Assembly (NCBI GenBank): GCA_963922205.1
Contig: CAWUHX010000098.1
Location: forward strand, 744,001 to 808,000
Reading direction: 5' to 3'
DNA length: 64,000 bases
From: Romanomermis culicivorax
Lineage: Eukaryota > Nematoda > Enoplea > Mermithida > Mermithidae
Shown here: piece after piece, positions 1,367 to 43,095 of the stretch
Numbering within the stretch: the first letter of the stretch is position 1
Layout of the letters: the number at the start of each line of letters is the position of its first letter
The notes under the pieces: generated by a model
Seen by the model: the letters and a program-made list of their open reading frames with translations, nothing else
The model's database searches: none
Told to the model about the DNA's origin: nothing
Position numbers and translations under genes: made by a program

Positions 1367-3491
1367 TTAAATCATTTTCGGATGCAAAATGAAATAGGGG
1401 GTTGGGGCACTAGGAATTGCTCGTTTCACGTAACGAATGCTGCTGCTGCGTGAGTGAGTAGCTTCAGAGTTTTGGGCGTGGTGGGCTACAAGTTGGAACA
1501 GGGCTTGTCCGAGGGTTGATAGAGGAGGCGGGTCTTCGCTAGAATGGTGGGGATTTTTGTAAAGGGATGCGGCAGATGGCAACAGTGGGGGCATTCTTTT
1601 GGCGCGCATGTTATGGAGGTACGCATAAGACCAAAAGAGGATGAAAACTACAGCAGCAATGCTTGCTATGACCACTAGATCATTAATGATTAATTGTAAG
1701 GGACATTTCAGCAGGTTATTCAAGCCATCTGTAGCACTGTGGGCTACGCCGCTGATAATCCGTTCCAATGATTTGGAATATCCTTGCATGACCTCTGACA
1801 TGCCTTGGCCTGCTCCTGACAGGGCTTCGTAAATGACGGAGGGGTTCAACGACATTTCTGAAGTATAGTTCATTATTCTATGCACATTAGCTTCTAAGCT
1901 GTGCACTTTGTACATGTACTGCTTCAAAAAAGCTAAATTGGAGGGGATAGATCCTAACTGATCATGAAAAATGGCTGGTGAGTCAAAATGAAAAACTTTG
2001 TATTTTCCATGCCAGAAAACTTGAACGGGTACTATAGTGACGTGGGTGGGTCCAGTTTCTGTCATCCATTTGTCTCCATTTTTGTATATGCTTATGGGTC
2101 GATGATGGCAATCAATTTTTGGGCTAAAAGGAAGTAGATCAAAGGTGCCGGGGGTCACGAACCAAAGTGTATCATTAACTCTGATGGGAAGATTTTTGTA
2201 ACACGTTTCATTTACTTTATGGGACGTAAAAATTTCTGTAGCATTTAGGGATTTACATTTTGAGACAGTAAGAACGTCGCCAGTAAACTCGATGATTATG
2301 TCAGTCCGATGTAAAAATGCACGGGCACAAAATGTAAAAGTTGCCAAATGATGTCAAGATATCTTTGGGCTTGACAGCACAATTCTGACCAAACATTTCG
2401 GAAATTTTCGTATTCCAGGTCCAAAATTTTTTGTGTTAAGAAATTTAACTTCACATTCACTGGGTCTGGGTTGATAGGGTCTGAATTTTCATCCGAATTT
2501 GACGAGGCGAGTTGGGTCATATTTTTAAGCACTAAAATGACTCCTTGGTGGGTTAGGACAGCTTTTTCAATTTTGGAACATTTAGTCTAAGCAGACTTTA
2601 GGGTAAATGCACCCTGAATAGCGTCTATGACAACATAATTATCATTTAGGGTTCTGTTATATATGCCTTTTAGTTGGAGGGAACAAGTGTCCTTGAATTT
2701 GGTATCATCCCACAAAATTATTCCATCAGTGAGAGTGCACTGTCCGGCTAGAGGCTTGCGACCGCCGGAGTCGCCTAAATCGGTGGTCAAATGATCAGGT
2801 TCCCAAGAGGCAACGTTACCTTCTTCGATAATCAAATTTGTTACTGTAGTACAATGATCACTACAGCACCACTTAAAATCGACTTTTAGTGGGTTTTCTG
2901 TGCTCCAAAAACCGGGGGAGACGTGGGTCAAATTTTTTCTTTGGTAACTTTTGGTGAAAAATGCTTCTCTGCACTCAGACACCGAAATTGGGGCAATTTT
3001 TGAGGAGTCCAGGACAATGCCTTTTGATCCGAAAAATCCCATGTTCGTACAAATAGTTCTCGTACACATTTGACATTTGAAGGCAGGGGCGGTATCTGGT
3101 TGGGTTTTTGGAATATAGACATCGGCCACTATTTTACTAAGATGGGCAGGGGAATTAGGGGCTTCACATTGGACACTTTTCGGGATGTCAATTGCATGAC
3201 CACTCCTAGACATACCACATAATTGAAATGTGCCATTTATTGGCGCGAAAAAAAACAACAAGAAAAATAAAAAAGAAATTATATTTGGTAAACAAAAATT
3301 TTCGTTTTGCCACGGTCGGCGTTGGGTCTCATCAGGCTGCATTGGTGATCTCGCCTGAACAAAAAACAAATTCTGGGTTAAGTTGGGTTTTGGGGATTCT
3401 TTTGTATATTCACCGTCTTCCATATCATCTGCGTAGACGATCTCAACTTGAAATTCGGCCGGGGATTTGGGGGTTGGTGGGCGAGTGGATT
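1367..3491 (-). pseudogene. Element A envelope-like membrane glycoprotein, broken
   Basis: Minus-strand coding sequence lying between gag and protease of element A. A hydrophobic signal-like segment (NIISFLFFLLFFFAP, about 3235-3285) is followed by a cysteine-rich ectodomain with many N-x-S/T sites. A C-terminal transmembrane segment (about 1610-1690, LVVIASIAAVVFILFW) precedes a roughly 80-residue cytoplasmic tail. This is the architecture of a type I viral or retroviral surface glycoprotein. An in-frame TAG near 2587 and a frameshift near 2345 break it. The family is not recognised; a glycoprotein captured from a negative-strand RNA virus is possible but unproven. The reading frame at its 5' end is continuous with the proline-rich tail after gag once element B is discounted. 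The ATG at 3588 lies inside the LTR of B and is not its start. Confidence 0.7.
3488..3491. other. Target-site duplication of element B, left copy
   Basis: GATT directly abuts the left LTR and recurs at 18181-18184 after the right LTR. A 4-bp duplication fits Ty3/gypsy integration. It shows that the flanks belong to one interrupted host sequence, element A. Confidence 0.75.
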
Positions 3492-4106
3492 TGTTGTGCA
3501 GGTCTTTCCTTAAGAGGCGTAAGAAAAGAGTGGGTCTGAACTGACCTGTTAGAACTGACCCATTGGCTAAGCCTCGGTGATAGTGCAACAGTCTGGTTAT
3601 CCCCAGACCTACAACAACAAAGATAAACTTAACTCTAAATACGGGGGCCTTACCAAGGACCTCCGCAGTCTCCTAGATGAGATAAGGAATCCCCTCAGGG
3701 ATAAACTTACTTGGGTATAACCCGTAAGGGGTTTCCCAAAGCTTACCTGAAGTAAGCCGGCGCCTGGGCCTCTGGCCCTCCGCCTTCGTCGATGCAAATA
3801 ATCTAAATAAATAAACGAATATATTAAACAATATGTCCGACGAAGTATGTAAAAAGAATGTGGGTATACCACAGTAGATAACTCATACACAAAACAAGTT
3901 GCTGGGAAAATTGTATTTGGGGACGACAGCAATATAGTCAAAAAGTATAATAAAAAACGAGATAAAGTGAAGAATGATTTTCACTATCTTTTTCGGTCTT
4001 TCTGTGGCGCTCCATTCTATGCAAATGTCTGCGCCGCTCGTCGTCCCTTTCGTCGATTTGCATGTCGATTTCCCCACACGAATTGGCATCAACAGGGTGC
4101 CCAACA
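3492..4106 (-). repeat. 3' LTR of element B
   Basis: 615 bp, matching 17566-18180 with about 11 substitutions and no visible indel. It begins TGTTGTGCAGG and ends GTGCCCAACA on the plus strand. On the sense (minus) strand the purine run GAGGGA just inside its edge (4107-4112) is the likely polypurine tract. Confidence 0.95.
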
Positions 4107-4859: not shown

Positions 4860-7800
4860 TTACTGCTGCTGCCCGCCGCCTCGGTAACCTCCTCGAGGTC
4901 TACCTTGATAGTATCCCCTCTGACCTGGTTGGCCTCGGGTCTGACCTCCATCATGGCCCTGGTTTTGGCCTTGCTGACTTCTGCCGCGTCTACCAAGCGG
5001 CATGAAGTTCGGATTGTGGAACTGCGCATCCCGGTCTTGACCTTGGTGTTGCCAGGTTCCTCGGCCTCTGTAAGGTAGCTGAGGGCGCCCTCTGAAGCCT
5101 ACTCTGGGTTGACCTTGGTCATACCCCGGTCTAGCCCTGTACGGGGCCGGGTTTGAGAACATATCGTCTCTCCCCTGCTGCCTTTGACCACTGCTAGTGG
5201 AGCTGCTGCGTTGTGGTTTTTGAGTCCCGTAAGTTGAATTAAGAGATTTTGATGATATTGATTCTGATCGAGAAAGCGGACTTTTATAAGAAGTGCTAGC
5301 AGCTTCACTATATGACCTCTGGCTGGTCGTAGCCGATGATTGTTGTATCGTTGGCAATTGTTTCTTAGCTGGAGGGAGTCTAGGCACTTTAAACTTACTT
5401 GGGCTCTTGGCAGCCGTTCGCTGATATTTATCAGCTTGCGACCTGTCATCGCCTGATGCCTTCCTCTTAACACCCATCTGGTTTAACCTTTGCGAGCCCA
5501 TAAAAATATATTGATTAAAGGCTGCAATGTAGACATCGTCTACGCGGTTTCCCTGGGCCTCAACGACTAGTTGTCTGTTCGCAAACAAACACGCCTGGGC
5601 ATACCACCTACCAATTGCTGTTGGCGTGATCGGAGCGAAATCCAACTGTAGAAATATCATTAGGGTCACATACCTAATGGCCGTAAAGACGTCTGAGGCA
5701 TCATAGTCCTGAAGCCATCTAGGAATAAGAATTAAGATGATCCATTCCCAGATTTCCTCAGGGATGCGCTCTCCATCAAACATAAATCCGCCCTGCATTT
5801 CAAATTGCTGGTGGTAATTTTCATGAATTTCGGCCATAGCGTCATTGACCATTCTGTAAATTATCGGCCGTTCTTGGCGATCAAAGGCGAAATAATTGGT
5901 GACCTCTGGATTTTCGAATGAGATCGGCCCAATTAAGCGCCTTTGTTCCCGTTGCCACTCCCAATAGTCAATCAGAGTTTCAGCTAATTGACCAGGAGTG
6001 ACAAACTGCTGTGGTTCCCTTTCGGGTCTACTAGCTACCACATTCAGTTTGACCTTCTTGATCAATTTCTCCTCCGATTCAAGATCGGGCTTCACCAATA
6101 CGCTTCCCGCAGGTTTGCTACTTCTTGCGGTATAGCTGGAGGGCACGGATTTGCTTTTGCCAGATGAAGTACTAACCTCTCCGCCGGTTTTCGATACCGT
6201 TCGCGTCTGAGTGTACGAAGTTGTCGCAGTGGACCCTGTTGTCCTATCCGATTTTGTCTGGCCTTTGGAGGTCTCCGTTCGTGTTTGACTTTTTGAAGTC
6301 TCCGTCCTCGTCTGACTTTTCGAAGTCTCCGTTCTCGACTTTTGGCTCGTCGAGTATTGTGGGGTCGTGGTTTCTTCGGCCGTATCGTAGGCGTCGTTTT
6401 CAGATCCGGTGGCGGCCGCTCCTTGTTGCTGCTGTCCTTGAGCTGCAAGTCTGCGTCGTTTGGCCTTACCTATCCTCTTTCTGCGCCTTACCTTTTCCTT
6501 GGCCAAGTGTCGGATAAATTTTTCCGACATACCTTCAGCTAACATCTGCTGAACTTTGTCTGGGGAATAAATTCCAGGAATACCTTCCTCGGCAATTCTT
6601 CCCCTCCTCATCAGCTCTGTCGCTGCAATGGCTGAATCTGAGCTATCATCGGCTAGTGCCTGCTCCTTCAGCTTCCTTTGGATTGCCCTCTGACGCAGGA
6701 ATTCCTGCTGCGTCAGCCTTCTCTGTTCTTGAATTTTGGCCTGTAGGGCCTCTTGCTTCGCTTGTCGGTCGTGATCCTTAGGATCTTTGGCCTTCACAGG
6801 TATCTCCTGGGATGCTTCCTGCATCTTCTCCAGTCTGACATCGATCCCTGACATTTTAGTGACTGCTTCGTCAATTTGAGTCTGGATTTTCTCCTCCTCA
6901 ATAGCCTGTTTCTGAGTCTTGGCCTCCATCGCATCCTTATTTTCTGATGTCTGGCCCTCAGATTCCAGAATTTCACCCTCTTCTTCTTCTTCGACATCCT
7001 CCTCTGAACTGGACTCAGAGTCTGAATTTCGTATCTTCGGCAAGAGCTGTTTTACTTTAGCTGGTAACACAGCTGGTGCCGGAGGTACAGACTGCATAAT
7101 GGTGACAACCTCTGGCTCAGGCTCGGCCGGTTGCTGTATTTGAGGTACTTGAGTCGGCTGTGCCACCGCTGGTTGCATTGGCGGCGGCACCACGACTACT
7201 ACTGCAGCTGCCTGCGTAGCAGCAGTGTCCAAAGCTGGTGTAGCTTTGACCACTGGCGTTAGCACTTGCGGCTGCGTTTTAACTTGTCCCGTCCCTCCGG
7301 CTTGCGCCGTTTCGGAAGTAGAGGGACGATTTACCGGTATCTTAGATATTAACTCACCGGCTGGGGTATATGTTAGTGTATACCCTGGCATCTCCGAAGC
7401 AATTGTTCTCTCCCGGAAGCTTTTGCTAACAAACTCCGGTCTGAGCTCGAGCGGATTTCTCCGTGCGTACGTAATTGGGTAATCGGTCGGCGATGCATCT
7501 TCCCTCATCGGATACCGTAGTCCCGGCGTCAAAGTCTCGAAGCCTACGTAGTAAAAAGTTACATAAAAGTAAGGATTTACCTTGTAGGCTCCGTCCTTCA
7601 ATAATGATTTGTCGTCGCCGATTTGCAAAATTTCCTCGGCTTCTCGAAATCGTAAGGGGACAAATCCGAACCAATTTTGCCACGCGTATACCCCTTTTTT
7701 AGATGGAAAGCGGGGTTCCGACGGCGGTAGCGTTGCTGCTAACTCTAAATAATAAGCCAGGCGGTCGCCTGACTTCCAGGACATTCGCTTTATCATCTCC

Positions 7801-8057
7801 TGTCCTTCTCTGGTATAACTGTTTAAGAAGTTATAGTTCAGCAAAGCGCTAGTTTCGTAGTCGCACTCCGCTCTCCAGTGCGGCCATGCCAAATGATAAG
7901 CCAATGGCATAAATTTACAGATGACCTCTAACTCCGCAAAGTTTCGCTCATCTAACATACCTGAAATTTTTGCCAAGTTTGGCGTATAAAAATTGGTCTT
8001 GTAGGCCTGTCTATGACCTTCGATACCCACTGGGTAGTGGTTGTTTGCGGAAAACAC
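4860..8057 (-). CDS. Element B third gene, distal part: 1065-residue low-complexity RGG protein
   Basis: An open frame of 1065 codons with no stop. Visible layout by approximate residue: 1-215 compact and rich in aromatics; 240-340 Pro/Gln/Ala-rich; 344-364 strongly acidic ([14 protein letters not shown]); 370-485 charged, probably coiled coil; 522-539 basic ([13 protein letters not shown]); 569-599 tandem [13 protein letters not shown] repeats; 680-866 a second compact domain; then a Lys/Ser region with a nuclear-localisation-like KRKAS; 985-1065 Gly/Arg/Gln with RGG motifs as in RNA-binding tails. It is in the same frame as the exonuclease ORF upstream, separated by one TAG and 19 sense codons, so the two may make one product by readthrough or may once have been continuous. 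No homologous family is recognised. Involvement in RNA binding is inferred from composition only. Confidence 0.8.
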
Positions 8058-8114
8058 CTCTTCAGGTATTTGATTGGGCTTCCCGGCCTGTTGCCAGTAT
8101 AGCTTGGCGTTTTC

Positions 8115-9388
8115 CTATAAAGTCAAAGAAATTTTCCCTTCTAAATCCCAATAGGTTCCACCTGACTTGAGATTTTCCAGTATATCCTTTGAAATATTAA
8201 CCCAGTCTGGTATCTGGACGTCCTGGATTTCGTCGGGATCTCTATCTGTAGTGTATCCATCGTCCTTCATCAGTTTGTTATCCCTTGGGAGCAGTGGATA
8301 GAAGCCACTTGGCAGTTGAACTCCCTGAGGACGAACTGGATTACACTCGGTGGGCGCGGTATAATAACCTGTGTTATTTCCCTGCATCTGTACAGCCCAA
8401 CGGTTATACATTTCACACTTCATCATGTGATAGACCATATTCGGCTGTACCTGATCGGTTTCCATAACTGGGGTACCTAGCCCCATTTCTCTATTTACGT
8501 TGCCCGGGATCATTAGGTATTGTTGATAAAAATGTAGGGCAACGGTGTTGATCTGTTTGGGATCCACCTTGTCATGGTCGAAAATCTGCATTTGCATAAG
8601 CAGTTGATCGGCCATGCCATAGTGAATGGCAGCAAACATGACTAATAAGGAGTAGTATGCGTCTAGAGCGGCGTATCTAAGCTCTTCCGGCAATATACCC
8701 CTTTTGGCAAACCGATCACGGTTTGCCTTTAATGAAAAGTCATACTGGTAGGGGCCCACGTCTATCAGGTAGAATTCCGTGAATAGTCCCTTTAACTGAA
8801 AGGTTTCGGGACAGATACCTGTCTGAAAGCATTTTTTCTCCAGGTTTACTCCTACCATGGTTAGAGCGAAATGGTCTAAATCAAAGTATCGACCCTTGGT
8901 CTTTCTAAGAAATTCCCGTAAGGGGACAGTTTTGTCCCTGTCCTTATTGTCTCGCCCTGCACCACATACGTTATAGATACTTACCAGGTCCTCCAATACG
9001 GAATATCCGGCGAAGAGCATGTCGGAGTTCAAGAAGTCGTGGAGGCTGGTCCACTCTTTGAACATCATTGACGTTGTATCAATAACGTAGGTTTGACCAT
9101 TCGTTAGCGCGAAGCTCACGTATCGGGCAAACTGCTTTCCCATTGGATTGTCGACCTCCCTCATTTTAAACAAGGCGGCGACCTTATCCTGGTTGACTTT
9201 TTCGACATCGAATCCACAAACTGGTTGTCCTCTGAAGATTGATACTTCTCGGATAAAGTGGAGTGTCTGGCTGACTTTCCTGATGTCTACCAATTTTGGT
9301 TCCTTGGGATTAGCCGGCCAGTACCCAAATGTGGCTTTAAACCACTGATCCAGTTCATGGATTCGCACGGCCCTTTTGACGTTATAAT
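8115..9388 (-). CDS. Element B third gene, proximal part: DEDDy 3'-5' exonuclease-like domain
   Basis: About 424 sense codons ending in TAG (8115-8117). Numbered from the codon at 9368, the frame shows all three DEDDy motifs: Exo I GFDVE (D54, E56), Exo [10 protein letters not shown] (D127) and Exo [14 protein letters not shown] (Y232, D236). These match the RNase D / WRN exonuclease / EXD1 / MUT-7 superfamily, which removes nucleotides from 3' ends using two metal ions. All catalytic residues are kept, so activity is plausible. The upstream edge is a predicted acceptor (TTTAG, exon from 9388) that joins in phase to the leader exon at 10085-10205. The C-terminal 150 residues (from about 255) have no recognised fold. 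It lies downstream of integrase, where env or accessory genes usually sit. Substrate and role are unknown. Confidence 0.8.
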
Positions 9389-10084
9389 CTAAACATAAGA
9401 TACTATTAATTTTAGTGTTTATTCCCCCTTTTTTTTTTTTTTTTTTTTCAGCGCATTTTCGGGTCTATACTACACCAGCACCACAACACCAAGCGGGTTA
9501 AGTTTCGCAGAAATTAAATTTAGTGCAGGTTGTTAGGTGAGCCACTGATATACAAACATTGAGCTGGTAGGCAACTAACACCTTACCAAATCTTACCCTT
9601 GCTACCTCTATATGTTGGGGAGGGTAGACCTGATCCGATTGTCCACCACTTGATCGGACACCAATCTCTGACCAGCTGCTTGAGCGACCAACTACGCTCC
9701 ATTTATGGCGCTGTATTTACAATTTTTATAGCGCTCGAGATTGATAATTTTTAATGAATTTGATATCGAAAAAGTGATATGATTTGATTTGATTTGAAAA
9801 TAAATAATTTTTGATAAACTTTTGATGATAAAACTTTAAAACGGGCTGAACCCAAGGTTCTAGGTTTCCCTTGAATCGTATAGCTCTCGGTGGTATCAGG
9901 TATATTTCCAAATTGGAAATTCCCTGCTTGGCTTCGAGCTTCCGCTTCTCAGTACTCCCATTTTTCGTTCCCTCTAAGTTCTAACCTCGTCTGCCCTTTG
10001 GGGCGCCGAGCTGGTCTTCCAGTGACTTCTGGGCATTACCTGCGGTTTCCAAGAATATTTGATAAAAATAAGTTCGAAACTTAC
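9389..10084 (-). other. Predicted intron of the element B third gene
   Basis: Minus-strand GTAAGT donor right after 10085 and TTATGTTTAG acceptor ending at 9389. The leader exon ends in phase 1, and the exonuclease frame needs two bases to complete the codon, which fits. The intron contains a long A run (plus-strand T run near 9430-9450). This is a prediction without transcript evidence. Confidence 0.5.
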
Positions 10085-10205
10085 CATCGATGAAGAAAAA
10101 ACGATTATCTTGGTGGTGCTGGGCCCTGCCATATTCGACGTGGCGCTCTGTGTGCGACCACTCGCGCGTCGGAGCTTGTTGGCGGTTCCGCGCGCCCTTT
10201 CCCAT
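10085..10205 (-). CDS. Predicted leader exon of the element B third gene
   Basis: 121 bases: 40 codons starting MGKGARNRQQ and ending FFFID, plus one base, followed by a consensus GTAAGT donor. Phase 1 matches the acceptor at 9388 exactly. The peptide is basic and hydrophilic. Another ATG in a different frame overlaps it (MAGPSTTK), but that frame would not join to the exonuclease frame. The alternative is that the exonuclease ORF is translated from another start. Confidence 0.5.
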
Positions 10206-10799
10206 CTCTTTTCGTTTTGAAATTTTTTCTTTCGATGGATAAATTTATAAAATTTAAAATTTTTGAACACTGAAAAAGTTTAATTTAGCAGTTCTGCTAA
10301 TTTCCTTTTTATCGCGGTTCAGGGAATATTTTAATTCTTCCTTCCGATATAAGTTTAGAATTCAGATAAGCGGGGCAGCTATAGTTTGATTTTGGAAAAA
10401 ATGAAAAATTTGAAAATTAGTTTTTTGGAAAAAATATCGGAAATATTTTGGGTTGTCACTTTGGTCTAAAATTCCGAAGAATTTTTCCCAGAGTCTGATA
10501 TAAATATGAAAAATTTACAAAATTAATACGAATAATACATAAACGCGATAAATATTACAAATTAATACATTTTTAATTAAAATTAGTACCTACGCCCGCG
10601 AGATATGTACACAAAAAAAATAAAAAAAAAATCAGTGCGAGATCGCGCATAGATTCGCCTTGAGCGAATTTCCAAATGATTTCATTTGGTTTGGCGCTCC
10701 AGTCCTAACTGTTTGTGCCATATTGGAAAGTGACGTATTTTCGTCACGTGGCGCGTCCTGATTGGCTCGCACTATTCGCGGCAAGACCCTAGTGGTCTC
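10206..10799 (-). other. Non-coding spacer between integrase and third gene
   Basis: No supported gene. AT-rich sequence between the integrase stop and the leader exon. It would contain the 5' untranslated part or promoter of the third gene if that gene is separately transcribed or spliced from a genomic-length RNA. Confidence 0.5.
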
Positions 10800-13340
10800 C
10801 TAACGAAAATGTTTCAACCTGCTGATTGAAACAGTTTGGCGATTTAGCGGGTTGTCCCAATGTACAATGGTGACAACATTCTCCGCTTCTCGCGAAATGT
10901 CCGTAACTATGAACGGACCGGACCATGGTAGTCCCAATTTTTTCTGCTTGTCTACTTTGAGCAGAACCCAGTCCTTTTCTTTAAATCCATTTTGTTTGGA
11001 CTTTTTATCGAAGTCTTTCTTCGATTTTTCGGCAGCACTCTGGATATTTTTAGCAATATCCTCGTAAAGGTTGACTAAATGATTGGTCAACACAAATTTG
11101 TATGCCTCTGCATTGCTGTCCGGCATTACAATATCGTATGCTTTCGATAAGTTTAACCCGAAGGTTGCCTCGTGACCTCTAAGCAATGAAAATGGGGATT
11201 GCCCCGTGGCTGCATGTGGTGTGGCATTATATGCAAACACCACAGCTCTCAAGTATCTCGGCCAGTTATCTTTTTCCTCGATGGCCACCTTTCTGAGCTG
11301 TTTAATGAGTGTCTGGTTGAACCTTTCTACCATACCATTTCCTTGTACATGGTAGGCTGTTGTAAAAATTTTCTGACACTCTAATAACTTGCAGATCTCT
11401 TTCATCAGATCTGAGGTAAAACAACCTCCTCTATCGCTGAGTAGTCTCCGTGGAGTCCCGTGCCTAAATACAATAGCTTGTAGAAAAGTATCTACAACGG
11501 TGCTAGCTGACTGATCCAGGATCAATTCAGGTTCAACCCACTTTGTAAAATAGTCCTGAAAGACTATAACATACGGTCTCTTCTCACTGAGTGGAGAAAT
11601 ACCCACGATATCCACTGATACTATGTCAAAAGGACCTTGTGGAATAATTGGTATCAGTGGCGGAATTTCTGTGTTTCCCTGATTAGCCATTTGATATACT
11701 GGACAAAATTTAATCCAGTGCCTGACATCCTTTTCAATTCCAGGCCACCAGAACCGTTTCTTAATCATAGCAAGGGTCCGTTTGAACCCCTGATGAGTCA
11801 TCATCACGGCACCGTGGTACTGGTGCAAAGTATTGTCCCTAAGGCAGGATGGGACGACCACTTGATCGTCCGATCCCTGTCCGGCTTCGCGGTATAACAC
11901 TTCATTCTGGATATAAAATCCACTATGATACTTGGTTGTCCCATTTGGACCCAATCTATCAAAGTACGGTTGTAGTACCTCATCTTTTCTCTGCAAGAGG
12001 GCCATGAGATCATCTCTAATTAACCCTTTTGGCAATTCATTTTCTTTGGGGTCTGCCAAAGTAAACTCTGGTTCTTTTTCTGGGTATAACCAGGTTACTC
12101 TGTTTTCCTTACTTTTTTCCTGGTTTCCCCTACTTACCTTTTGGTTGACCTGATTGCCATCAGGCTGGATCTGAGCCTGATTACTCTTCTCCGCTTCTTT
12201 CACCATGCTCCTTGTAGTTACGGCATTTACCAAGTCTGCAGACGAGTTTGATTCTGGATCACCCTCAGAATCTTCTGGATAAATTTGAGTGAACCTCGGA
12301 CTCATATCAGTCCTCTGATTCTTCTTACCTTTTGGCTCCAAATGTAACGGAGTACCGTCTTCAGGATTCCGATCTGTCAGAATTCTGAATCTCTTTACTA
12401 AATTGAGATGCTTTTTCTCAATAAGCTGTGCCTCAAGATCTTTCAGATTTTCAGACTCTCGTTTATCCTTTGAGAACATGTGTTCCCATTTTGGCGGTAT
12501 TTTTTCCGCTTGATCGTCTGGTTCATCCATCCTGGACAAAAAGTCTGCCATGGCATTTTGTTTTCCAGGCACATACTCTAGTTTATGGTTGAACTGAGAG
12601 ATGAATGAGTACCATCTCTTCAACTTACCATTGGTCATGGCATTGACCTTCATAGACAACAAAGGTTTGTGATCAGTTCTTATGATCACTCTATGACCTA
12701 CTAGGTAGTGCTTGTATAACTTTAAGCCATACACAATTGCCAAGCACTCCCTTTCCGTGGCTGACCACTTTTTCTCATCCGCCTTTAAAATTCTGCTATT
12801 ATAAGCAATTACCCAGCAGTCTGACTTGGTCTCCTGGTAAAGGACTGCTCCTAGTGCCGTTCCGCTGGCATCTGTCTGAAGGACAAAGTCCGCAGACCCG
12901 TCCAAAACCGGATACCTAAGGAATGGCACAGACAATAGTGCTTCTTTCAGGCTCCTAAAAGCCTGATGGTGAACCTCCGTGATTTCCCAAACACAGTTCT
13001 TCCCAGTTAATTTATACAATGGTTCAGCATGTTTAGCTAAACCCGGTATGAACTTCTTACACCACTGCAACATACCTAAAAACCTTTGCAGTTTACGTTT
13101 AGATTCTGGGAATGCGAAATCATTAATAGCTTTGACCTTTTTCGGATCTGGGGAAACTCCATCCGAATTTAAGATATGTCCTAAAAAATGAACTCTCTCC
13201 GGCAAGAATTCACACTTCTCCGGCTTCAAGGTCAAATGAGCCTTTCTTAGAGCTTGCAGGACTAGCTCTAGATTAACTAGGTGTTCCTCAAACGTATTTG
13301 AGAACACAATTATATCGTCTATATAGACTAGACAGATTTT
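10800..13340 (-). CDS. Element B pol: end of RT, RNase H, integrase
   Basis: Continues the RT frame after a single TGA (13341-13343). It opens with the catalytic YIDD box. RNase H follows (LQTDASGTALGAVLYQ, then RTDHKPL). Integrase has an N-terminal zinc-finger remnant (HQYH ... CPVYQ, with the last cysteine apparently replaced by Tyr) and a DDE core: VDIVG, LLSDRGGCFTS and GMVERFNQTL. It ends with a GPFIVTDIS-type tail and no chromodomain. A linker rich in charged residues separates RNase H and integrase. The order RT-RH-IN with YIDD places it in Ty3/gypsy (Metaviridae). Confidence 0.95.
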   Translation of the reverse strand, partial: KICLVYIDDIIVFSNTFEEHLVNLELVLQALRKAHLTLKPEKCEFLPERVHFLGHILNSDGVSPDPKKVKAINDFAFPESKRKLQRFLGMLQWCKKFIPGLAKHAEPLYKLTGKNCVWEITEVHHQAFRSLKEALLSVPFLRYPVLDGSADFVLQTDASGTALGAVLYQETKSDCWVIAYNSRILKADEKKWSATERECLAIVYGLKLYKHYLVGHRVIIRTDHKPLLSMKVNAMTNGKLKRWYSFISQFNHKLEYVPGKQNAMADFLSRMDEPDDQAEKIPPKWEHMFSKDKRESENLKDLEAQLIEKKHLNLVKRFRILTDRNPEDGTPLHLEPKGKKNQRTDMSPRFTQIYPEDSEGDPESNSSADLVNAVTTRSMVKEAEKSNQAQIQPDGNQVNQKVSRGNQEKSKENRVTWLYPEKEPEFTLADPKENELPKGLIRDDLMALLQRKDEVLQPYFDRLGPNGTTKYHSGFYIQNEVLYREAGQGSDDQVVVPSCLRDNTLHQYHGAVMMTHQGFKRTLAMIKKRFWWPGIEKDVRHWIKFCPVYQMANQGNTEIPPLIPIIPQGPFDIVSVDIVGISPLSEKRPYVIVFQDYFTKWVEPELILDQSASTVVDTFLQAIVFRHGTPRRLLSDRGGCFTSDLMKEICKLLECQKIFTTAYHVQGNGMVERFNQTLIKQLRKVAIEEKDNWPRYLRAVVFAYNATPHAATGQSPFSLLRGHEATFGLNLSKAYDIVMPDSNAEAYKFVLTNHLVNLYEDIAKNIQSAAEKSKKDFDKKSKQNGFKEKDWVLLKVDKQKKLGLPWSGPFIVTDISREAENVVTIVHWDNPLNRQTVSISRLKHFR

Positions 13341-15942
13341 TCAAACATATGGATGCAAAACTCTTTCCATCATACGCTGGAATTCGGCTGGCGCATTTTT
13401 TAGGCCAAAGGGCATGACTTTAAATTGATAAAGCCCTTCTTGGCATATGAAAGCAGTTTTTTCCTTGCTTTCTTCATCCATTGGCACTTGCCAATATCCT
13501 GATTTGAGATCTAAGGTAGTATAAAACTTGGCTTTACCTAAACAGTCTAGATAGTCACCCATTCTAGGAATGGGATACTTATCATCCTTGGTAACGTCAT
13601 TTATACCCCTAAAGTCCACTACTGGTTGCTTGGTACCATCCTTTTTACTTACAAGGAATAACGAAGCTGCCCAAGGCGACTTTGATAGCTCAATTACACC
13701 CTTTCTGACCATATCTTGCACATGCTCACGAACATGTGGCCGTAAATTTATAGCAGTCCTGTGGTACTTTTTTGCCAGAGGGGCCGCATCGCCTGTATTG
13801 ATTTTACAGGTCAGGTAGGGTGTAGTAGTTGGCGGATCATTGGGCAAGCTGAACACGTCTCTATATTTTGCGAGACATCGTAGAGCTTGTTCCAATTGCT
13901 CTGATGGTATGTTGGATTTAGCCAGCATATTGTACAAAGCTTCCTTGAATGCTTTCTCATCCGATTGAGGAGCTTCAGGTCTAGCTTGAACTGCACACGT
14001 TTGCAGCTTCTCCGGATCCTCAACTATCTTCCCCTTAAGTTGATCTTGGTTATCAGTATCACACAACACTGAATTAGTATGGCCAATTATTTGATTTCTT
14101 TTCAAATGGCATCCTGATCCTGTGTTGTTAGATACCATAACAACAAAATCATCTTTTGTACCATCTACTATGGTACTATCAATGTGGAACCTTTCTTCAT
14201 TCTCTTCAGACTCTATTATGATTCCATTAAGGCGATTTTCGCCTACCTTATCCCGAAGCTTTGCCCTCAGAAGTATATCAGTACCACTAGGTAAGTAGAT
14301 GGGGTTCACACTTACCACTGGCACCGAAACCTTTAGCAGGCAAATCTTTGGCTGGTATTGGTCGGCGGCGCTCATCGTGGATTCCGCGGCGCTCGTGGTC
14401 ATGACCTCTCCACAATTCGATTGGGGCTGGTCTGGCGTCACGTATATCCGTTGTTGACGGTTGTTGAGCGTCATCGTCCTATTCCTGAAATCTATTATGG
14501 CTCCTACCTGAGGATGAGCCAAAAAGTCTGTACCCACAATAACATTTTCACATGCTTCAGGAATTACAATTGCTTTAACGGGGAACTGTCCACACAATGT
14601 ATCCATCCTAAATTGGATATACCCATGGGCTTGGACTGTCTTACCGTTTGCTACAGTGACATTTAATATCCTCGGATATTCAGTGTAATCCGGGCCCAAA
14701 GTTTCTTTCAGAAACTTAGCCGAAATGACAGTGCACTGAGCTCCTGTGTCAATTAAAGCCATTGTCTTACGACCTCTTATAACAACCTCAATGTGGAATG
14801 GGGCTGTTCTGGGGCACGTATCCAGCAAATGTTGTTCCTGAGGACTAGCTGGTGTGCCTCTCCTTACTACTTGTGCTGATGGTACTACAGGTTGTGGTGC
14901 AATTGCATTCATTTGCACAATACTACCTAATACAACATTTGGGCAACTCACTCTCTGATTTACTTCACCTAAAGGACTCATTTGAGATTGCCTTGCAACC
15001 ATAACACTCGAATAATCCTTTTGGGGTGGCTGATTTGTGAATTGACCCTGTTGAAGAGTCTGAGTCGGACCCATAATAGCCTGAGGAGGCTGAGGATGCT
15101 GTAATGCAGCTTGCTGTTGGTATTGCTGCATCTGTTGGAACTGCTTCTGCAGCTCCTTCTGCTTTTTAAACTCCAGAAATTCATTATAATCTGAATTCTG
15201 TTGGTAACTCTCGTGGCTATCCTGATAACCTGAATAGCCTATATTATAAGCACCTCTGCCTCTACTGTTGAAATTAGCATTAGGGTAACCTCCTCTACCT
15301 CTATAGTTACCTCTAGCAAAAGTGTTAAAGCCTCCCCTGTTGAAGCTAGGGAAGCTGGCTCTGCCTCTGCTCCTGCGCTCGGACAATACTCTCAATGTCC
15401 TGCAGTCTGCAGTATTATGTGTTATGTTCTTGTGGAACTCACACCATGGCTTTGTCGGATCTCAGGAAACTTGACCTCCCTGACTGGTAATCCGTATGGC
15501 CACATCAGACCGATTTTCCGCTTGCCTGTTATCAACCTTTTGCTGGAGCTGGTCGAACCTTTCCACCAGTTGTACCATCTCTTTAGAAATTTTCAGTAGA
15601 AGAGATTCTTTCTTACCTTTTTCGGTCTGAGCCCTAGGGGCTTCCCGAACTGGAATCTCCTCTATCTCAGGAGAATCACTCCTTGACCTATGGGTTTGGG
15701 CCTGTACTTGATTACCCTACAGTTTGATATGGTTGCCGAAACCTTTGCCTCTGGCCTTGTTGATATCCTTCTGACTGGTTCCTAGCAACTACGGCAATTT
15801 CAGGATCATGCCCACTAGGCATACCTACTTCATTAATTACAATAGGATCCTGTTGTGTACCCTTAGGTCCGTATCTCTGAAAGGCATTTTTGTACCTACG
15901 TTCAATATCATGAACTTCTACTGCTAGATCATACCAAGTTCA
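13341..15942 (-). pseudogene. Element B gag nucleocapsid region, protease and reverse transcriptase (N-terminal part)
   Basis: On the minus strand: a Gly/Arg/Asn-rich region, a zinc-knuckle variant with spacing C-x2-H-x4-H-x4-C (CEFHKNITHNTADC, near 15410-15450), a retropepsin with ALIDTGAQCTVI (about 14720-14765), and RT motifs DFRGINDVTKDDKYPIP, TTLDLKSGYWQ and PFGLKNAPAEF. Lesions compared with copy C: TGA at 15940-15942 at the gag junction, one extra G near 15718 shifting the frame, TGA at 15462-15464, and TGA at 13341-13343 just before YIDD. Without these, gag and pol would be one continuous frame. Confidence 0.92.
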
Positions 15943-17540
15943 AAAGGTATGCTTTGGATTTTTCAGTTCAGACTGAAACGTGGGATGACTCTTATATATA
16001 AAGGTGTCAATAATCAGTCTTTGTCTTGACTGATAGTCTAAATCACCCTTTACTAGTTCTACTAATATACTGACCCTTTTTAAAAACTCTACGGCCTGTT
16101 CACTAGGTCTTTGTTGGATCTCAAACAGCTCCCTGGTTAACATTTCCAGGTTACACTCAGGTGCAAAGACATCTATGATGGCTCTCCTGGCCTCCCTATG
16201 GGTCATGTTGTCTCCTGCAACAGCCTTCAGTCTACCCTTAGAAAGCCTCAGCAGTGCTTCATATTTAGCTGATTCGGGTGTATCCCTACGGAATTCCCCT
16301 TCAAGTGCTGTTAAGACGCTAAGCACCTGCTGATTTACCATACCCTCATCTAAAAGTTTGGGTAACACACCTTTAACGATATTCCTGACTACAATCTCTT
16401 GTGCCAAATTATTTGATGGCACTTCCCTCTGATCATAAGCTGCTGTTAATACTGGATCAAGATCAGAGTTCAGAGATTGCAGCATAACTCTATTTGGATC
16501 TCGTTGAGGTGGTACACCTCCTTGATATGATGGCATACTGTCTTTGTCAAACCTGTAATCCCTATATGGGAAGCATGCCAATTGATCTGGTCTAAGGGTA
16601 TTTGGATCAACTATATTTCCTCTACCATCATAGACCACCCTAGTTAAAGTTGGATGCTGGGAAGCTATCTGATTTTGATTCCTGAAGTCTGCTGATTGCT
16701 CAGCTCCTTCGAATCGAAGATCTCTAGCTGGACCTCTCCAACTTTTGGGCTCAAAGTTAAGCCTTTGCCCTTCATCAATATCAGGCCTATTACTAGGCCC
16801 TGCGCCTGCACTCATTTCAGCAGCGAGACGGTTGTCTCTTTCTGCACCCCTATTACATGGTCTAACCTGTCTATCCGGCTCTTGTCGGCGCCTGTCAGCT
16901 TCCCTTTTGTTGTCCTCTGTGGCGGCATTCGCGATTATGTCGAACAAGGCTTCGACGGTCCCTTTTAATTCGCGTAGCTGCTTCGCCAATTCCTGATTGG
17001 ACATCTCGGGAGCTCTTTCCTGCGGTTGGAATCGCTCTTGTTCCTGGGGAATCCTCTCTAATCGTTGATCGATTTCGGAGTCCCTTTCTTCCAAATTTGG
17101 TCGAATTTCGGGCGTAACGACGTCAATTTTTGGTCCTGCTAATTCGACCTTTGGCGGCGGTGACCTTTTGAAATTTCGCTGCGGCAGTCCATCGGCATCT
17201 GGGTTCGGATTCGCCGGGCGTGCCTCCTGCGGATCGATGGCAATCCCTGGTGGTCGGTCAATTGGTATGCCTGCGTCTTGAGGCGTAAAATGCATTGCAT
17301 TTTATTGCAATGGTTGAACCCTCGCGGGAGTTTGATCTGGGATCACTGGGTCCGGAGCAGCATGCCGTTGCTGATCTCTGTCTCCCAAATTGACTAGATT
17401 CCCAGCACTCGCCACTCTGGGTGGTGATCTATGTAAAGTATTACCTCTCGGTATCCTTTCATTAGGCATTTTGAAACCTGCTAACTTTCGATAGTAGCCT
17501 GGAGGATTTTCTATTCTCCTAGTCTGACTACCAAGTTCCG
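15940..17540 (-). pseudogene. Element B gag (matrix/capsid part), start codon lost
   Basis: A 451-codon open frame (17295 down to 15940) homologous to the gag of copy C. It contains a proline- and charge-rich N-terminal part, then a helical capsid-like region with [19 protein letters not shown] motifs. Homology to copy C extends upstream to about 17535. There the ATG of copy C (43071) corresponds to ACG here, and a TAA (17302-17304) interrupts the frame. The product would assemble the cytoplasmic particle. The frame stops at 15940-15942 (TGA), where copy C indicates an arginine codon. Confidence 0.85.
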
Positions 17541-17565: not shown

Positions 17566-18180
17566 TGTTGTGCAGGTCTTTCCTTAAGAGGCGTAAGAAA
17601 AGAGTGGGTCTGAACTGACCTGTTAGAACTGACCCCTTGGCTAAGCCTCGGTGATAGTGCAACAGTCCGGTTATCCCCAGACCTACAACAACAAAGATAA
17701 ACTTAACTCTAAATACGGGGGCCTTACCAAGGACCTCTGCAGTCTCCTAGATGAGACAAGGAATCCCCTCAGGGATAAACTTACTTGGGTATAACCCGTT
17801 AGGGGTTTCCCAAAGCTTACCTGAAGTAAGCCGGCGCCTGGGCCTCTGGCCCTCCGCCTTCATCGATGCGAATAATCTAAATAAATAAACGAATATATTA
17901 AACAATATGTCGGACGAAGTATGTAAAAAGAATGTGGGTATACCACAGTAGATAACTCATACACAAAACAAGTTGCTGGGAAAATTGTATTTGGGGACGC
18001 CAGCAATATAGTCAAAAAGTATAATAAAAAACGAGATAAAGTGAAGAATGATTTTCACTATCTTTTTCGGTCTTTCTGTGGCGCTCCATTCTATGCAAAT
18101 GTCTGCGCCGCTGGTCATCCCTTTCGTCGATTTGCATGTCGATTTCCCCACACGAATTGGCATCAACAGGGTGCCCAACA
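17566..18180 (-). repeat. 5' LTR of element B
   Basis: Direct-repeat partner of 3492-4106, 615 bp, same TGTTG...CAACA ends. On the sense strand it is the upstream LTR and should contain the promoter. No TATA box was assigned with confidence. Confidence 0.95.
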
Positions 18181-18184
18181 GATT
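18181..18184. other. Target-site duplication of element B, right copy
   Basis: GATT, matching 3488-3491. Confidence 0.75.
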
Positions 18185-19756
18185 GGGCTGACACTGCTGA
18201 TGATTGTGATGGGAACCGTTGACGTCCAGCAGGTGGGGCAGGGCTTAGGGTCCTAGAGCTCGTTTTTTGATTGGTGTTGGGAGTGGGTTTTTTCGGCTTT
18301 TACGGATTTTTTTTTTTGAAAATTGATTGAAAAAAATAAGGGCCCAATTTTTGCAATTTCGGGGAAAATTTAATTTTTAACAAGGAGATGGGCCGTTGGG
18401 TGGTTTGGGTATTTTCGGTCATGGCCATCTTGACCGACTTACTTTTATGGTTGGGTTTGTTGCTTTTTGTAAACAATGTATTGATGTGGCCTGCTTTCTG
18501 TTGTCCTGAACATTGGAGGAACATTTCTATATCATCAAAATCGAGGGGGCAAGAGAGGGCAATATCTGGAGGGCAGGATTGTTGGTGAATATTGGATGGG
18601 TACTTACTTTTTGGTGGCGCTGTGCAATGCCTGGCCAAATGGTTACGCTCCCCACAGTTAAAGCAGCTGTTATTGGAACAGCCAAAATTATTTTGGGGTG
18701 TGGGCGGACTTTGGTTGGACCATTGGTTTTCTGAATAGGGCCGCCTGTAACCCATGTCGGTTTTCCAAGTGTTGGGCTTGCGGGGATAACTATTTTTTCG
18801 TTGGTCATCTCGTTGTTTCTTGCGGCACTCGTTTTCCAAGTGGCCGCTCTTGCCACAATAAGTGCAGGAAGCCGATGCAGGGGTCATTTTTTGTTCGAGA
18901 AGTTATGGCATTTTATCTGTGAGGTCAAGTAAAGAACGTTCAATATTACTTCGGGTAACTGTTGCAACCATGTCAATGGGGGGTATTCTGGGAATGGATG
19001 ATGAGAAACCAGGTCGGGCTCGTTGAGATTCTACGTACATGACAGCCTTATGGGCTTCATCTAAGTTTGAGAATTCACAGTATCTCAAAATTTCACCAAT
19101 TTCAGGCATTAAGCCCAGTAAAAATGTGGGTTTTATCAGATTTTCTCTATCCTCCAAGGACAAATTTGGGAAAGCTTGCCTCGCAATTTTTCTAAGTTCT
19201 GAAAGAAATTCAGTGCCAAGTTCTGAACTTTTTTGTTTTCTCTCCATCAAAACTTGTTGTTATTTGGGTATAAATGTTGGAAACAATTTTTATACTGCTC
19301 GTATGTGGTGGGAGGGTTCTGTCTTAGCCTCAGATCATCCAAGGTGGCTAGAGCAGGTCCAGAAAGGTAGGAGTCGAAACAGGCTTTCCTTATTTCTTCA
19401 TCGTCAGGTTTGACACCTTGAAAGGTGAGGAAGGTTTCAAAATTTTTTATCCAGTCCAAAAAATTTTGACCAAAAGAACCGGAAAATAAAGGTGGGGATC
19501 TGATGGGAACAAATGGGTTGTTTCTGAAATTGGCTAAGCGGATATCATTCAACACTGTATTTATTTCACGATTTGGGGCATTTTGACCAGGAATGACATC
19601 TCTTAGCCGGTCTTCTAGACCCCTAAGTCGGTCTTCAACAACATGTTCAATGGGATGTCTAACAATTTGATCGATCTGGTCAGGGTGGATCATTTTTTGG
19701 GTGTTCAAAACTTGGTTTTTTGCTTCCTTTTCAATTTGATGAAATTGATCTGACAA
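18185..19756 (-). pseudogene. Element A gag with two zinc knuckles, broken
   Basis: Minus strand from ATG at 19756. A coiled, charged N-terminal part is followed by a capsid-like domain of retrotransposon-gag type (LFSGSFGQNFLDWIKNFETF, then a region with TEFLSELRKIARQAF). A nucleocapsid with two CCHC knuckles follows, CTYCGKSGHLENEC (about 18820-18862) and CFNCGERNHLARHC (about 18625-18667). Damage: a frameshift at 19247-19250, TAA at 18903-18905 and TAA at 18300-18302. After the last TAA the same frame continues as a proline/serine-rich tail to the B insertion point and resumes at 3491, running into the glycoprotein. Gag would form the particle core. Confidence 0.85.
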
Positions 19757-21918: not shown

Positions 21919-22255
21919 CACACGACCCGCAGGAGGACAAGGGGTAAGGTGCTGCACATATTCTTGCCAATTGGGCTGTTTCTTGGAATCTTTTCAACAA
22001 TTTCATTGAATTATTGACTACTGAAATGAGCATTAACTGCGACACACTGTGAGGGGCCAGGCCGCATGCCCCGTGGGAGGTCAAGGGGTAAGGTGCTGCT
22101 CATATCCTTGCAAATTGGGCTGTTTCTTGGAGTCTTTTCAACAATTTCATTGAATTATTGACTACTGAAATGAGCATTAACTGTGACACACTGTGAGGGG
22201 CCAGGCCACATGCCCTGTGGGAGGTCAAGGGGAAAGGCGCCGCACATACACAACC

Positions 22256-24670: not shown

Positions 24671-25346
24671 AATTTGCCCAATTTGCAAGAATATGTGCGG
24701 CGCCTTACCCCTTGACCTCCCGCGGGGCATGTGGCCTGGCCTCTCACAATGTGTCGCAGTTAATGCTCATTTCAGTAGTCAATAAGTTAATCAAATTGTT
24801 GAAAAGATTTCAAAAAACAGCCCGATTTGCAAGAAATTGTGTGGCGCGTTACCCCTTGACCTCCCGCGGGTCGTGTGGTCGTGTCCAAGGCTTCCAAGAT
24901 GGTGTCCCTGCTGTTTGACGCGCTCTAGCTTCTATTTATTTTCGAGTTTGATGAAGAAGTTGATTGTTTTGCTGAAGGGATTAATAATCTGACAAATTTA
25001 CTGTATGTACACTTACTAACCAGGCGCGGCCGTTAGCATATCATATCTACCAGGAGTGGTACCTGGTTTCAACTTCGTGGTTCATAATCTAATAGGATTA
25101 ATAATACTAAAGCCACATTCGGCATGAGCACTTTCAATTGAAAGCAGCCCGATTTCTGACATGTGCAGGAATCAGTTGACACGACAATCTTCAACGTCTG
25201 ACTACTATTCTCTGCATATAATTAGTACATTCAAGTTACATGATTGGGAGCTGGAAAATGGGGTTGAAATAGTAAATGGTTTTTGACTGTAAAAAGCGTA
25301 AAGTAGGGGCATTAATCATTTTTGTAAGTTCGAAAGACTACAACTC

Positions 25347-35989: not shown

Positions 35990-36240
35990 CTTTGTTCATC
36001 CATTGGCACTTGCCAATATCCTGACTTGAGATCTAGGGTGGTATAAAATTTGGCTCTACCTAAACAGTCTAGATAGTGGTCCATTCTTGGAATGGGATAC
36101 TTATCGTCCTTGGTGACCTCGTTTATACCCCTAAAGTCCACTACTGGTCGCTTGGTACCATCCTTTTTATGTACTAGAAATAACGGAGCTGCCCAAGGCG
36201 ACTTTGATGGCTCTATCACACCCTTCTTGAGCATATCTTG
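35990..36240 (-). pseudogene. Copy C reverse transcriptase fragment (distal)
   Basis: Matches element B around KKDGTKRPVVDFRGINEVTK and TTLDLKSGYWQVP. It ends abruptly at about 35990 in non-homologous sequence and begins at the hAT insertion. Confidence 0.9.
36233..36240. other. hAT target-site duplication, left
   Basis: ATATCTTG, identical to 39281-39288. The uninterrupted sequence in element B (near 13708-13715) carries a single copy of this stretch. Confidence 0.97.
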
Positions 36241-39200: not shown

Positions 39201-39280
39201 TCCGGATCTACCAAACCAAATTTTTCTAGATCCGGATCCAGATATGCCATCATCAAAAAAGTCGATCCGGCCCATCCCTA
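36241..39280 (-). mobile_element. hAT transposon, 3040 bp, nearly intact
   Basis: Ends TAGGGATGGGCCGG and CCGGCCCATCCCTA form a perfect 14-bp inverted repeat. Exact 8-bp duplications flank it. Sub-terminal GATCCGGATCCG-type repeats occupy about 36260-36400 and 39120-39270. It encodes a BED-finger hAT transposase on the minus strand. Confidence 0.97.
36447..38927 (-). pseudogene. BED zinc-finger hAT transposase with introns
   Basis: From the ATG at 38927, or an inner ATG at 38903 (MDSSSY). The N-terminal BED finger is CNECGIQLSRKG...HLERKH (about 38740-38850). Further motifs follow: VVCDSGSNIVKAL ... CAAHQMNLIV (about 37760-37880), TxWNSTLVML (about 37460-37490), FTIATFIDPRYKDKF (about 36990-37040), and the C-terminal hAT dimerisation region (WWCLKQTSLPNLSLIAKKFL, then SGAGQIYDSTRNRL, about 36500-36660). 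The pieces lie in different frames separated by AT-rich gaps that look like short introns. The arginine of the usual TRWNS motif is TGA here (37484-37486), so this copy is probably dead. Confidence 0.9.
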
Positions 39281-39288
39281 ATATCTTG
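39281..39288. other. hAT target-site duplication, right
   Basis: ATATCTTG, see 36233-36240. Confidence 0.97.
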
Positions 39289-41480: not shown

Positions 41481-41484
41481 AATT

Positions 41485-43071: not shown

Positions 43072-43095
43072 TATGAGGAGTTAAAAGCCACCACT

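What the first reader, a model, noticed from the sequence alone, without database searches (positions are those of the whole stretch)
4860..10205. LTR retrotransposon carrying a DEDDy 3'-5' exonuclease gene
Seen: downstream of integrase in element B a long open frame contains [13 protein letters not shown] and [11 protein letters not shown], i.e. all DEDDy catalytic residues (D54, E56, D127, Y232, D236 counted from 9368). Known: this motif set defines RNase D/WRN/EXD1/MUT-7 exonucleases; MUT-7 and EXD1 act in small-RNA pathways. Inference: the element has acquired an RNA- or DNA-trimming enzyme, perhaps to process its own transcript or cDNA ends or to counter small-RNA silencing. LTR elements normally carry env or nothing here. 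I recall exonuclease-like accessory ORFs in giant rotifer retroelements, but cannot check that.
Basis: partly seen in the sequence, partly recalled or inferred. Interest (0 to 1): 0.87.

Follow-up and report, generated by a model that had tools for sequence, protein, structure and literature searches.

The report
Nematode retrotransposons carrying an exonuclease gene
An abundant family of retrovirus-like jumping elements in what looks like a roundworm genome carries, besides its usual genes, a conserved, probably spliced gene for an RNA- or DNA-trimming enzyme, and related element families share the enzyme, one of them apparently without a reverse transcriptase of its own.

Summary
Element B is a complete Ty3/gypsy-type provirus (window 18180-3492, minus strand) with two 615-bp LTRs and a 4-bp target-site duplication. 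It is no chance insertion: the 99 other scored genome matches cover the domain at 96-98% identity, 6 of 6 copies examined have RT, integrase and both LTRs, and 34 of 36 copies checked via the non-coding leader carry it. pN/pS is 0.035-0.10. A second family (41% identical) shares the whole protein and its intron. A third shares only the exonuclease (Pfam E about 1e-10); no RT was found in six of six copies examined. The genome has nematode cuticle-collagen domains. DEDDy ORF3s are published for bdelloid rotifer LTR elements, so this is a new variant of a known kind; I saw no nematode report in the library searched. Function was not shown. I favour a nuclease acting mainly on the element's own RNA; small-RNA counter-silencing is the main rival.

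The parts
18181..18184 (-). target-site duplication AATC, 5' side
   Evidence: direct reading of flanks; matches 3488-3491
17566..18180 (-). 5' LTR, 615 bp, TG...CA
   Evidence: 98.2% to the 3' LTR (11 differences in 616 aligned bases)
15940..17295 (-). gag-position ORF (451 aa; bounded by stops)
   Evidence: no Pfam family above cut-off, named by position only
13341..15395 (-). pol, first piece: aspartic protease and N-terminal part of RT; ends at a stop codon inside RT
   Evidence: gag-asp_proteas 5.6e-10, RVT_1 3.2e-19; stop at 13343-13341
10800..13307 (-). pol, second piece: rest of RT, RNase H, integrase (H2C2, rve)
   Evidence: RT_RNaseH 8.1e-31, Integrase_H2C2 1.9e-17, rve 2.5e-12
10270..10277 (-). 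splice-acceptor-like TTTTTCAG ahead of exon 1, present in 20 of 20 loci
10085..10205 (-). exon 1 (ATG, 40 codons + 1 base), donor GTAAGT at 10084
   Evidence: ATG, open frame, donor and phase kept in 20 of 20 loci; counterpart exon in L069
9389..10084 (-). intron, 696 nt, acceptor TTTAG; holds blocks invariant in 20 of 20 loci (9709-9638, 9616-9521)
   Evidence: 87% of intron columns invariant (69-93% by section) against 54% of the non-coding leader 10799-10290
8118..9388 (-). exon 2, part 1: DEDDy 3'-5' exonuclease domain (ORF 9368-8115), D54 E56 D127 Y232 D236
4860..8114 (-). exon 2, part 2 (ORF2): two conserved regions, low-complexity middle, RGG-rich tail; same frame as the exonuclease, separated from it in this copy by the stop at 8117-8115
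   Evidence: 34% and 29% identity to the same regions of family B2
3492..4106 (-). 3' LTR, 615 bp
3488..3491 (-). target-site duplication AATC, 3' side

Best explanation
Shown by sequence: element B is a Ty3/gypsy-type LTR retrotransposon whose third gene, in the env position, is laid out as a spliced gene and encodes one protein of about 1.5 thousand residues: a DEDDy 3'-5' exonuclease domain, two further conserved regions and an RGG tail. The gene is a fixed part of the element and under purifying selection. A second LTR family shares the whole protein; a third shares the exonuclease domain. Inferred: the protein is a catalytically active, RNA-bound 3'-5' exonuclease that works mainly on the RNA of the element that encodes it (trimming or protecting its 3' ends during export and particle assembly), the RGG tail holding the RNA. 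The cis preference is inferred from retention of the enzyme in a family without recognisable RT. Identity of the gene about 0.95; this mechanism about 0.4.
For: LTRs and TSD. Exonuclease in 100 scored matches of 3271 first-look candidates, the window itself and 99 others at 96-98% identity; 95 of 100 without a stop inside it and 57 of 100 with an unbroken frame of at least 1510 codons (counted by hand; best-scoring copies, so intactness is overstated). Sample drawn without regard to the exonuclease: 34 of 36 copies found through the leader carry it. pN/pS 0.035 in 19 of the 20 best copies and 0.10 in 18 leader-drawn copies outside the list. Splice layout in 20 of 20 loci and, with the same phase and place, in family B2's L069. 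Whole-protein homology between B1 and B2. Third family: RT not detected in 6 of 6 copies, exonuclease-domain pN/pS 0.14 over 30 loci, one member recently inserted (3 mismatches in 627-bp LTRs, TSD ACCG). That family's nearest solved relatives: WRN, MUT-7 homologue, Rrp6.
Against: No activity, RNA binding, transcript or splice junction was observed. The window's own sequence alone matches no Pfam or PDB entry and its single-sequence model is useless. The RGG tail's RNA binding is recalled knowledge of RGG proteins, not tested; the third family's exonuclease ORF in L070 has no RGG tail and has its own ATG, so neither tail nor splicing is general. The conserved intron blocks do not fold unusually stably (z = -0.64). 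Two of 36 leader copies (L073, L091) lack the exonuclease at the expected place, and the partial second copy in the window shows none. Cis preference is an evolutionary argument from one family; bdelloid TelKA2n kept an env-like ORF after losing most of pol (PMC5408684), so retention need not be special to this gene.
Confidence: 0.55

Rival explanations
1. Counter-silencing nuclease: the protein shortens or destroys the host's small RNAs (in nematodes, secondary siRNAs with free 3' ends; recalled) that target the element, a self-encoded suppressor of RNA interference.
For: The third family's profile has WRN and MUT-7 homologues as nearest solved relatives; the host looks like a nematode, a group in which RNAi silences transposons (recalled). 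Strong constraint and high copy number.
Against: A diffusible suppressor would be a public good, so a family without RT would not be expected to keep it under selection. No small-RNA data.
Confidence: 0.3
2. cDNA or ssDNA end processing: the enzyme trims 3' ends of reverse-transcription products before integration.
For: DEDDy enzymes such as WRN may act on single-stranded DNA (PMC5408684, passage read); LTR elements make ssDNA intermediates (recalled).
Against: Integrases process their own cDNA ends (recalled); in B1 and B2 the gene is laid out for a spliced message apart from pol and has an RGG tail, which suggests RNA.
Confidence: 0.12
3. RNA-binding export factor without need of catalysis: a Rev- or CERV-like protein that binds the conserved intron blocks and carries unspliced genomic RNA out of the nucleus.
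For: Same place and a spliced layout like CERV of Cer1, reported as needed for export of genomic RNA (PMC10309623, passages read). Intron blocks invariant in 20 of 20 copies while the exonuclease's synonymous sites differ by 14%.
Against: All five catalytic residues are unchanged in 19 of the 20 best loci tabulated (L014 not counted) and kept in 16 of 18 leader-drawn copies, which a pure binder would not need. No sequence link to CERV tested. The intron blocks were not found in L069 by blastn.
Confidence: 0.13
4. Passive passenger: a host gene trapped in one element and carried along without function.
For: The window copy itself is broken by a stop at 8117-8115; 9 of 18 leader-drawn copies have a stop in the domain.
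Against: Present in three LTR families, two of them 41% identical to each other in this domain; pN/pS 0.035-0.14.
Confidence: 0.02

Closest known systems
DEDDy-type ORF3 of bdelloid rotifer LTR retrotransposons Juno and Vesta, and of Athena/Terminon elements (Rodriguez, Kenefick and Arkhipova 2017, PMC5408684)
   Same: DEDDy/RNase D-like exonuclease ORF downstream of pol in LTR elements; shared between different element families; the paper says ORF3s in LTR elements are typically expressed from spliced messages; activity undemonstrated there too.
   Different: Here the host is very probably a nematode; in two families the ORF is a fusion of about 1.4-1.5 thousand residues with extra conserved regions and an RGG tail; copy numbers are much higher (100 scored copies in each of two families, against 1-2 full-length copies per family on average in the paper); one family keeps the enzyme without recognisable RT. 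The paper reports the motif DEDD changed to DEED; here D-E-D-D plus Y is intact. Direct sequence comparison could not be made.
CERV of Cer1, C. elegans Ty3/gypsy element (Sun et al. 2023, PMC10309623)
   Same: Spliced gene in the env position of a nematode Ty3/gypsy element, not an envelope protein.
   Different: CERV is 517 residues with H, M and G domains; the word exonuclease does not occur in the paper.
Cellular DEDDy exonucleases WRN, MUT-7/EXD, Rrp6, RNase D (PF01612)
   Same: DxE, Gx(5)DL-type and YAALDA motifs; the third family matches PF01612 at 1.3e-10 and WRN at 4.2e-6.
   Different: Element-borne; B1 gives no Pfam match and B2 stays under the cut-off (one B2 copy, C17:1817048, reaches 24 bits with its neighbours in the frame against 23.6).

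Membership tests
DEDDy exonucleases (PF01612) | three Exo motifs with D, E, D, Y, D | tested here: met
   all five in the window copy and unchanged in 19 of the 20 best loci tabulated and in L069
DEDDy exonucleases (PF01612) | score above the curated Pfam cut-off | tested here: not met
   window sequence: no match; B2's L069 16.5 bits against 23.6; third family's L070 41.8 bits, passes. Membership of B1 rests on the profile-profile link
DEDDy exonucleases (PF01612) | RNase H-like exonuclease fold | tested here: inconclusive
   pLDDT 36 without an alignment
DEDDy exonucleases (PF01612) | 3'-5' exonuclease activity | not testable with these tools
   needs bench assay
Ty3/gypsy LTR retrotransposons | LTRs with TG..CA and short target-site duplication | tested here: met
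   4-bp TSD in the window copy and in 5 of 6 further copies
Ty3/gypsy LTR retrotransposons | pol order PR-RT-RH-IN | tested here: met
Ty3/gypsy LTR retrotransposons | RT phylogeny | not tested
   no reference RT set at hand
Bdelloid DEDDy ORF3 family | direct sequence relation to Juno/Vesta ORF3 | not testable with these tools
   sequences not held; protein database switched off
Bdelloid DEDDy ORF3 family | position downstream of pol in an LTR element | tested here: met
CERV-like export factors | spliced gene between pol and 3' LTR | tested here: inconclusive
   layout fits in 20 of 20 loci, but no RNA data
CERV-like export factors | need for export of genomic RNA | not testable with these tools
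   needs bench assay

The most novel reading that the evidence does not exclude
In this nematode lineage a 3'-5' exonuclease has become a core enzyme of LTR retrotransposons, as indispensable as RT and integrase: it is held under selection in at least three families and is kept even by a family in whose examined copies no RT is recognisable. That implies a cis-acting step in the retroelement life cycle (for example 3'-end licensing of genomic RNA, in B1 perhaps guided by the invariant intron blocks) that textbook elements leave to the host.
Probability: 0.3. Interest if true: 0.82.

Novelty: new variant of a known kind. Interest (0 to 1): 0.62.

Why it matters
Exonuclease ORFs in retroelements were described from bdelloid rotifers, with low copy numbers and, by that paper, no significant departure from neutrality within the genome. 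Here the same kind of gene is found in a probable nematode, in many copies, with strong purifying selection, a conserved splice layout and an apparently RT-less family that keeps the enzyme. Nematodes are among the animals in which transposon silencing by small RNAs, with the DEDDy protein MUT-7, is best studied (recalled), so whether the element's enzyme works for or against that machinery becomes directly testable.

Tried and rejected
Rejected: chance motif match (homology in three families). Rejected: one-off host insertion. Rejected: exonuclease and ORF2 as two genes: they share one frame, 57 of 100 scored copies read at least 1510 codons without a stop, and L069 has one 1357-aa ORF. Rejected: short intron between exonuclease and ORF2 (a possible 47-nt intron would shift the frame; hand check). 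Considered, unsupported: strongly folded RNA in the intron (z = -0.64, 56 of 200 shuffles fold at least as well); Rfam families or tRNA genes in the window (none; Rfam at gathering cut-off).

Led nowhere: structure prediction from one sequence; NCBIfam (0 families) and PHROGs (2 weak matches, E 0.27 and 0.33, for the exonuclease; 0 for ORF2); relatives in viral contigs for two proteins (0 found); single-sequence PDB search; profile of B1+B2 against PDB (4 rows, none significant; a MUT-7 homologue at E 0.85 is third, after two photosystem proteins). Not run: genome-contig scan, second structure job, fold search.

Paper searches whose listings showed no exonuclease-bearing nematode LTR element. 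Of PMC5408684 I read the first of five parts and passages; of PMC10309623 and PMC6431247 only passages. The library lacks most subscription journals, so absence there is weak.
Full report
What is there. Element B lies on the minus strand between two 615-bp LTRs (18180-17566 and 4106-3492; 11 differences in 616 aligned bases) with the duplicated target site AATC outside both ends. [quoted passage not shown] The window copy is not intact: gag and pol carry stops (one inside RT at 13343-13341), and a stop at 8117-8115 splits the third gene. Unbroken frames of the third gene exist elsewhere.

Gene structure. No ATG opens the exonuclease frame. An exon with an ATG at 10205, 40 codons long, ends at 10085 before GTAAGT, and is in phase with 9388 after TTTAG. 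Ahead of it is TTTTTCAG at 10277-10270. In 20 of 20 loci the acceptor-like site, ATG, exon frame, donor, phase and second acceptor are kept. In a different family, L069, the same arrangement is found with a different exon 1 sequence that ends in the same way (NRYFLVD-G|GTAAG against NRFFFID-G|GTAAG) and the same phase. That a gene structure survives at this divergence is good evidence for it, but no RNA was seen.

The enzyme. The window's ORF finds nothing alone in Pfam, NCBIfam or the PDB, and only two weak matches in PHROGs. The motifs [13 protein letters not shown] and [11 protein letters not shown] are the three Exo motifs (recalled). Three results tie it to the family: family B2 (L069) is 41% identical over 422 columns and reaches PF01612 at E = 0.0076, under the cut-off; a third family matches PF01612 at 1.3e-10 (L070), with WRN at 4.2e-6, a MUT-7 homologue at 3.5e-5 and Rrp6 at 0.002 in the PDB profile search; and profiles of B1+B2 and the third family align at 91% probability, E = 1.1e-6 for that one comparison, with all three motifs in register. 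BLASTP between L070's ORF and the window's domain gives only E = 0.001. The fold itself was not confirmed.

The rest of the protein. ORF2 continues in the same frame for 1,084 codons: an N-terminal region (34% identity to L069), a variable low-complexity middle, a C-terminal region (within a 29% match) and an RGG-rich tail. Over the roughly 500 ORF2 codons held for 20 loci, pN/pS is 0.04 in the first 100 and 0.2-0.6 further on (in L006 and a few others the frame is broken there). The third family's ORF shows no such additions in L070.

Is it a fixed part of the element? The genome search scored 100 of 3271 candidates: the window copy and 99 others at 96-98% over all 417 residues (two of them from residue 2); 95 of the 100 have no stop in the domain and 57 an unbroken frame of at least 1510 codons (counted by hand). 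These are the best-scoring copies, so intactness is overstated. In 6 of 6 copies looked at in pieces, RT and integrase lie upstream and LTRs at the expected distance on both sides; 5 of 6 have perfect 4-bp duplications and 2 to 6 LTR mismatches; the sixth (C364) has 41 and no duplication. To remove the bias I drew copies by the non-coding leader 10780-10290: 40 matches scored of 627 candidates, of which 16 (the window among them) are in the list, 20 were fetched and 4 were not. Of those 20, 18 carry the domain at the expected place and 2 (L073, L091) show no match there. So 34 of 36 tested. In these 18, nine have at least one stop, 16 keep all five catalytic residues, one has one changed, one lacks two; pN/pS is 0.10 (pS 0.135). 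In 19 of the 20 best loci (L014 left out, its match begins at residue 2) it is 0.035 (pS 0.14).

Other families. B2: 100 scored of 3333 candidates, L069's own copy and 99 at 94-98%; 42 of the 100 rows have open frames of 1396 or 1398 codons, three of these with a stop inside the domain. Third family: 116 PF01612 matches in the genome, 12 of them in open frames of 608-610 codons; how many of the 116 belong to elements was not determined; the best 30 loci were looked at and align to one family. The member read in full (L070/L071) has 627-bp LTRs with 3 mismatches and the duplication ACCG, a 1143-aa frame with a zinc knuckle, RNase H-like and integrase-like parts but no RT match, then the exonuclease. 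In five further copies no RT match is found between the gag side and RNase H either, by tblastn with the window's and L069's pol pieces. Over 30 loci the exonuclease domain has pN/pS 0.14, the rest of its ORF 0.24, and the end of the upstream frame 0.76 in the 27 loci that align. The 30 loci were picked by Pfam score, which favours a conserved exonuclease. So an apparently RT-less lineage has kept this gene under selection. Unexplained: silent divergence in the exonuclease (pS 0.44) is higher than in the upstream frame (0.16), which may mean exchange between elements or alignment effects.

Host. The window's genome (359 Mb, 595 contigs) holds 50 matches to the nematode cuticle collagen domain PF01484, all over the cut-off, with none in the 14 control genomes; the control names seen are all prokaryotes, so they are a weak control. 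That this domain marks nematodes is recalled. The species is unknown.

The intron. Its columns are 87% invariant in 20 loci (69-93% by section) against 54% in the adjacent leader, with invariant runs of 96 and 72 bases, although the exonuclease's silent sites differ by 14%. It does not fold unusually well, and L069 does not share it by the blastn comparison made. A cis-acting signal, or recent exchange of this stretch, would both fit.

How it may work. Shown: conservation, architecture, constraint. Inferred: catalysis, RNA as substrate, cis preference. An enzyme useful to all elements alike should be lost from parasites of parasites; the RT-less family has not lost it. That is why I put action on the element's own RNA (0.4) before small-RNA destruction (0.3), with DNA end processing and pure RNA binding behind. 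Against a general RNA-holding role of the RGG tail stands its absence in L070. TelKA2n of rotifers, which kept an env-like ORF after losing most of pol (PMC5408684), shows that such retention alone is not proof.

What is known. DEDDy ORF3s in LTR elements were reported from bdelloid rotifers in 2017 (PMC5408684; first part and passages read) and are restated for Terminons in a review (PMC6431247; passages read). CERV of Cer1 (PMC10309623; passages read) shows that a spliced gene in this position in a nematode element can serve RNA export. In the listings of eight paper searches I saw nothing on exonuclease-bearing LTR elements in nematodes.

Verdict. Observation confirmed; the inference that the element acquired the enzyme is supported; its function is open. 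New variant of a known kind.

Noticed in passing
window 1367-3588 and 18300-19756, minus strand: Element B seems to sit inside another LTR-type element: an ORF matching Pfam Monjiviricetes_fusion (PF24664, 2.7e-8) lies downstream and a zinc-knuckle gag-like ORF upstream. No pol of that outer element was seen in the ORF lists.
   Followed up: partly
window 35990-43700, minus strand: A second, older B-like partial copy (about 85-90% identical in gag-pol blocks, its LTR 76% to B's 3' LTR) that ends in pol; no exonuclease match there; a stretch of about 3 kb interrupts it.
   Followed up: partly
window 9709-9521, minus strand: Two intron blocks (72 and 96 bases) without a single difference in 20 copies; a TATA-like stretch lies just upstream.
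   Followed up: partly
L070 with L071 (G000:C74): LTR element family with an open 1143-aa frame, no RT match in 6 of 6 copies examined, and a conserved 601-aa exonuclease ORF.
   Followed up: yes
L073, L091: Two B copies with leader but no exonuclease match at the expected place; not examined whether deletion or later insertion.
   Followed up: no
window 21919-22248 and 24676-24878: Long inverted repeats (about 200 bases, 87-89% complementary) about 2.5 kb apart, with tandem duplications of about 144 bases in the arms.
   Followed up: no
L039-L068, third family: Silent-site divergence in the exonuclease (0.44) exceeds that of the upstream frame (0.16); possible exchange of modules between elements.
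   Followed up: no
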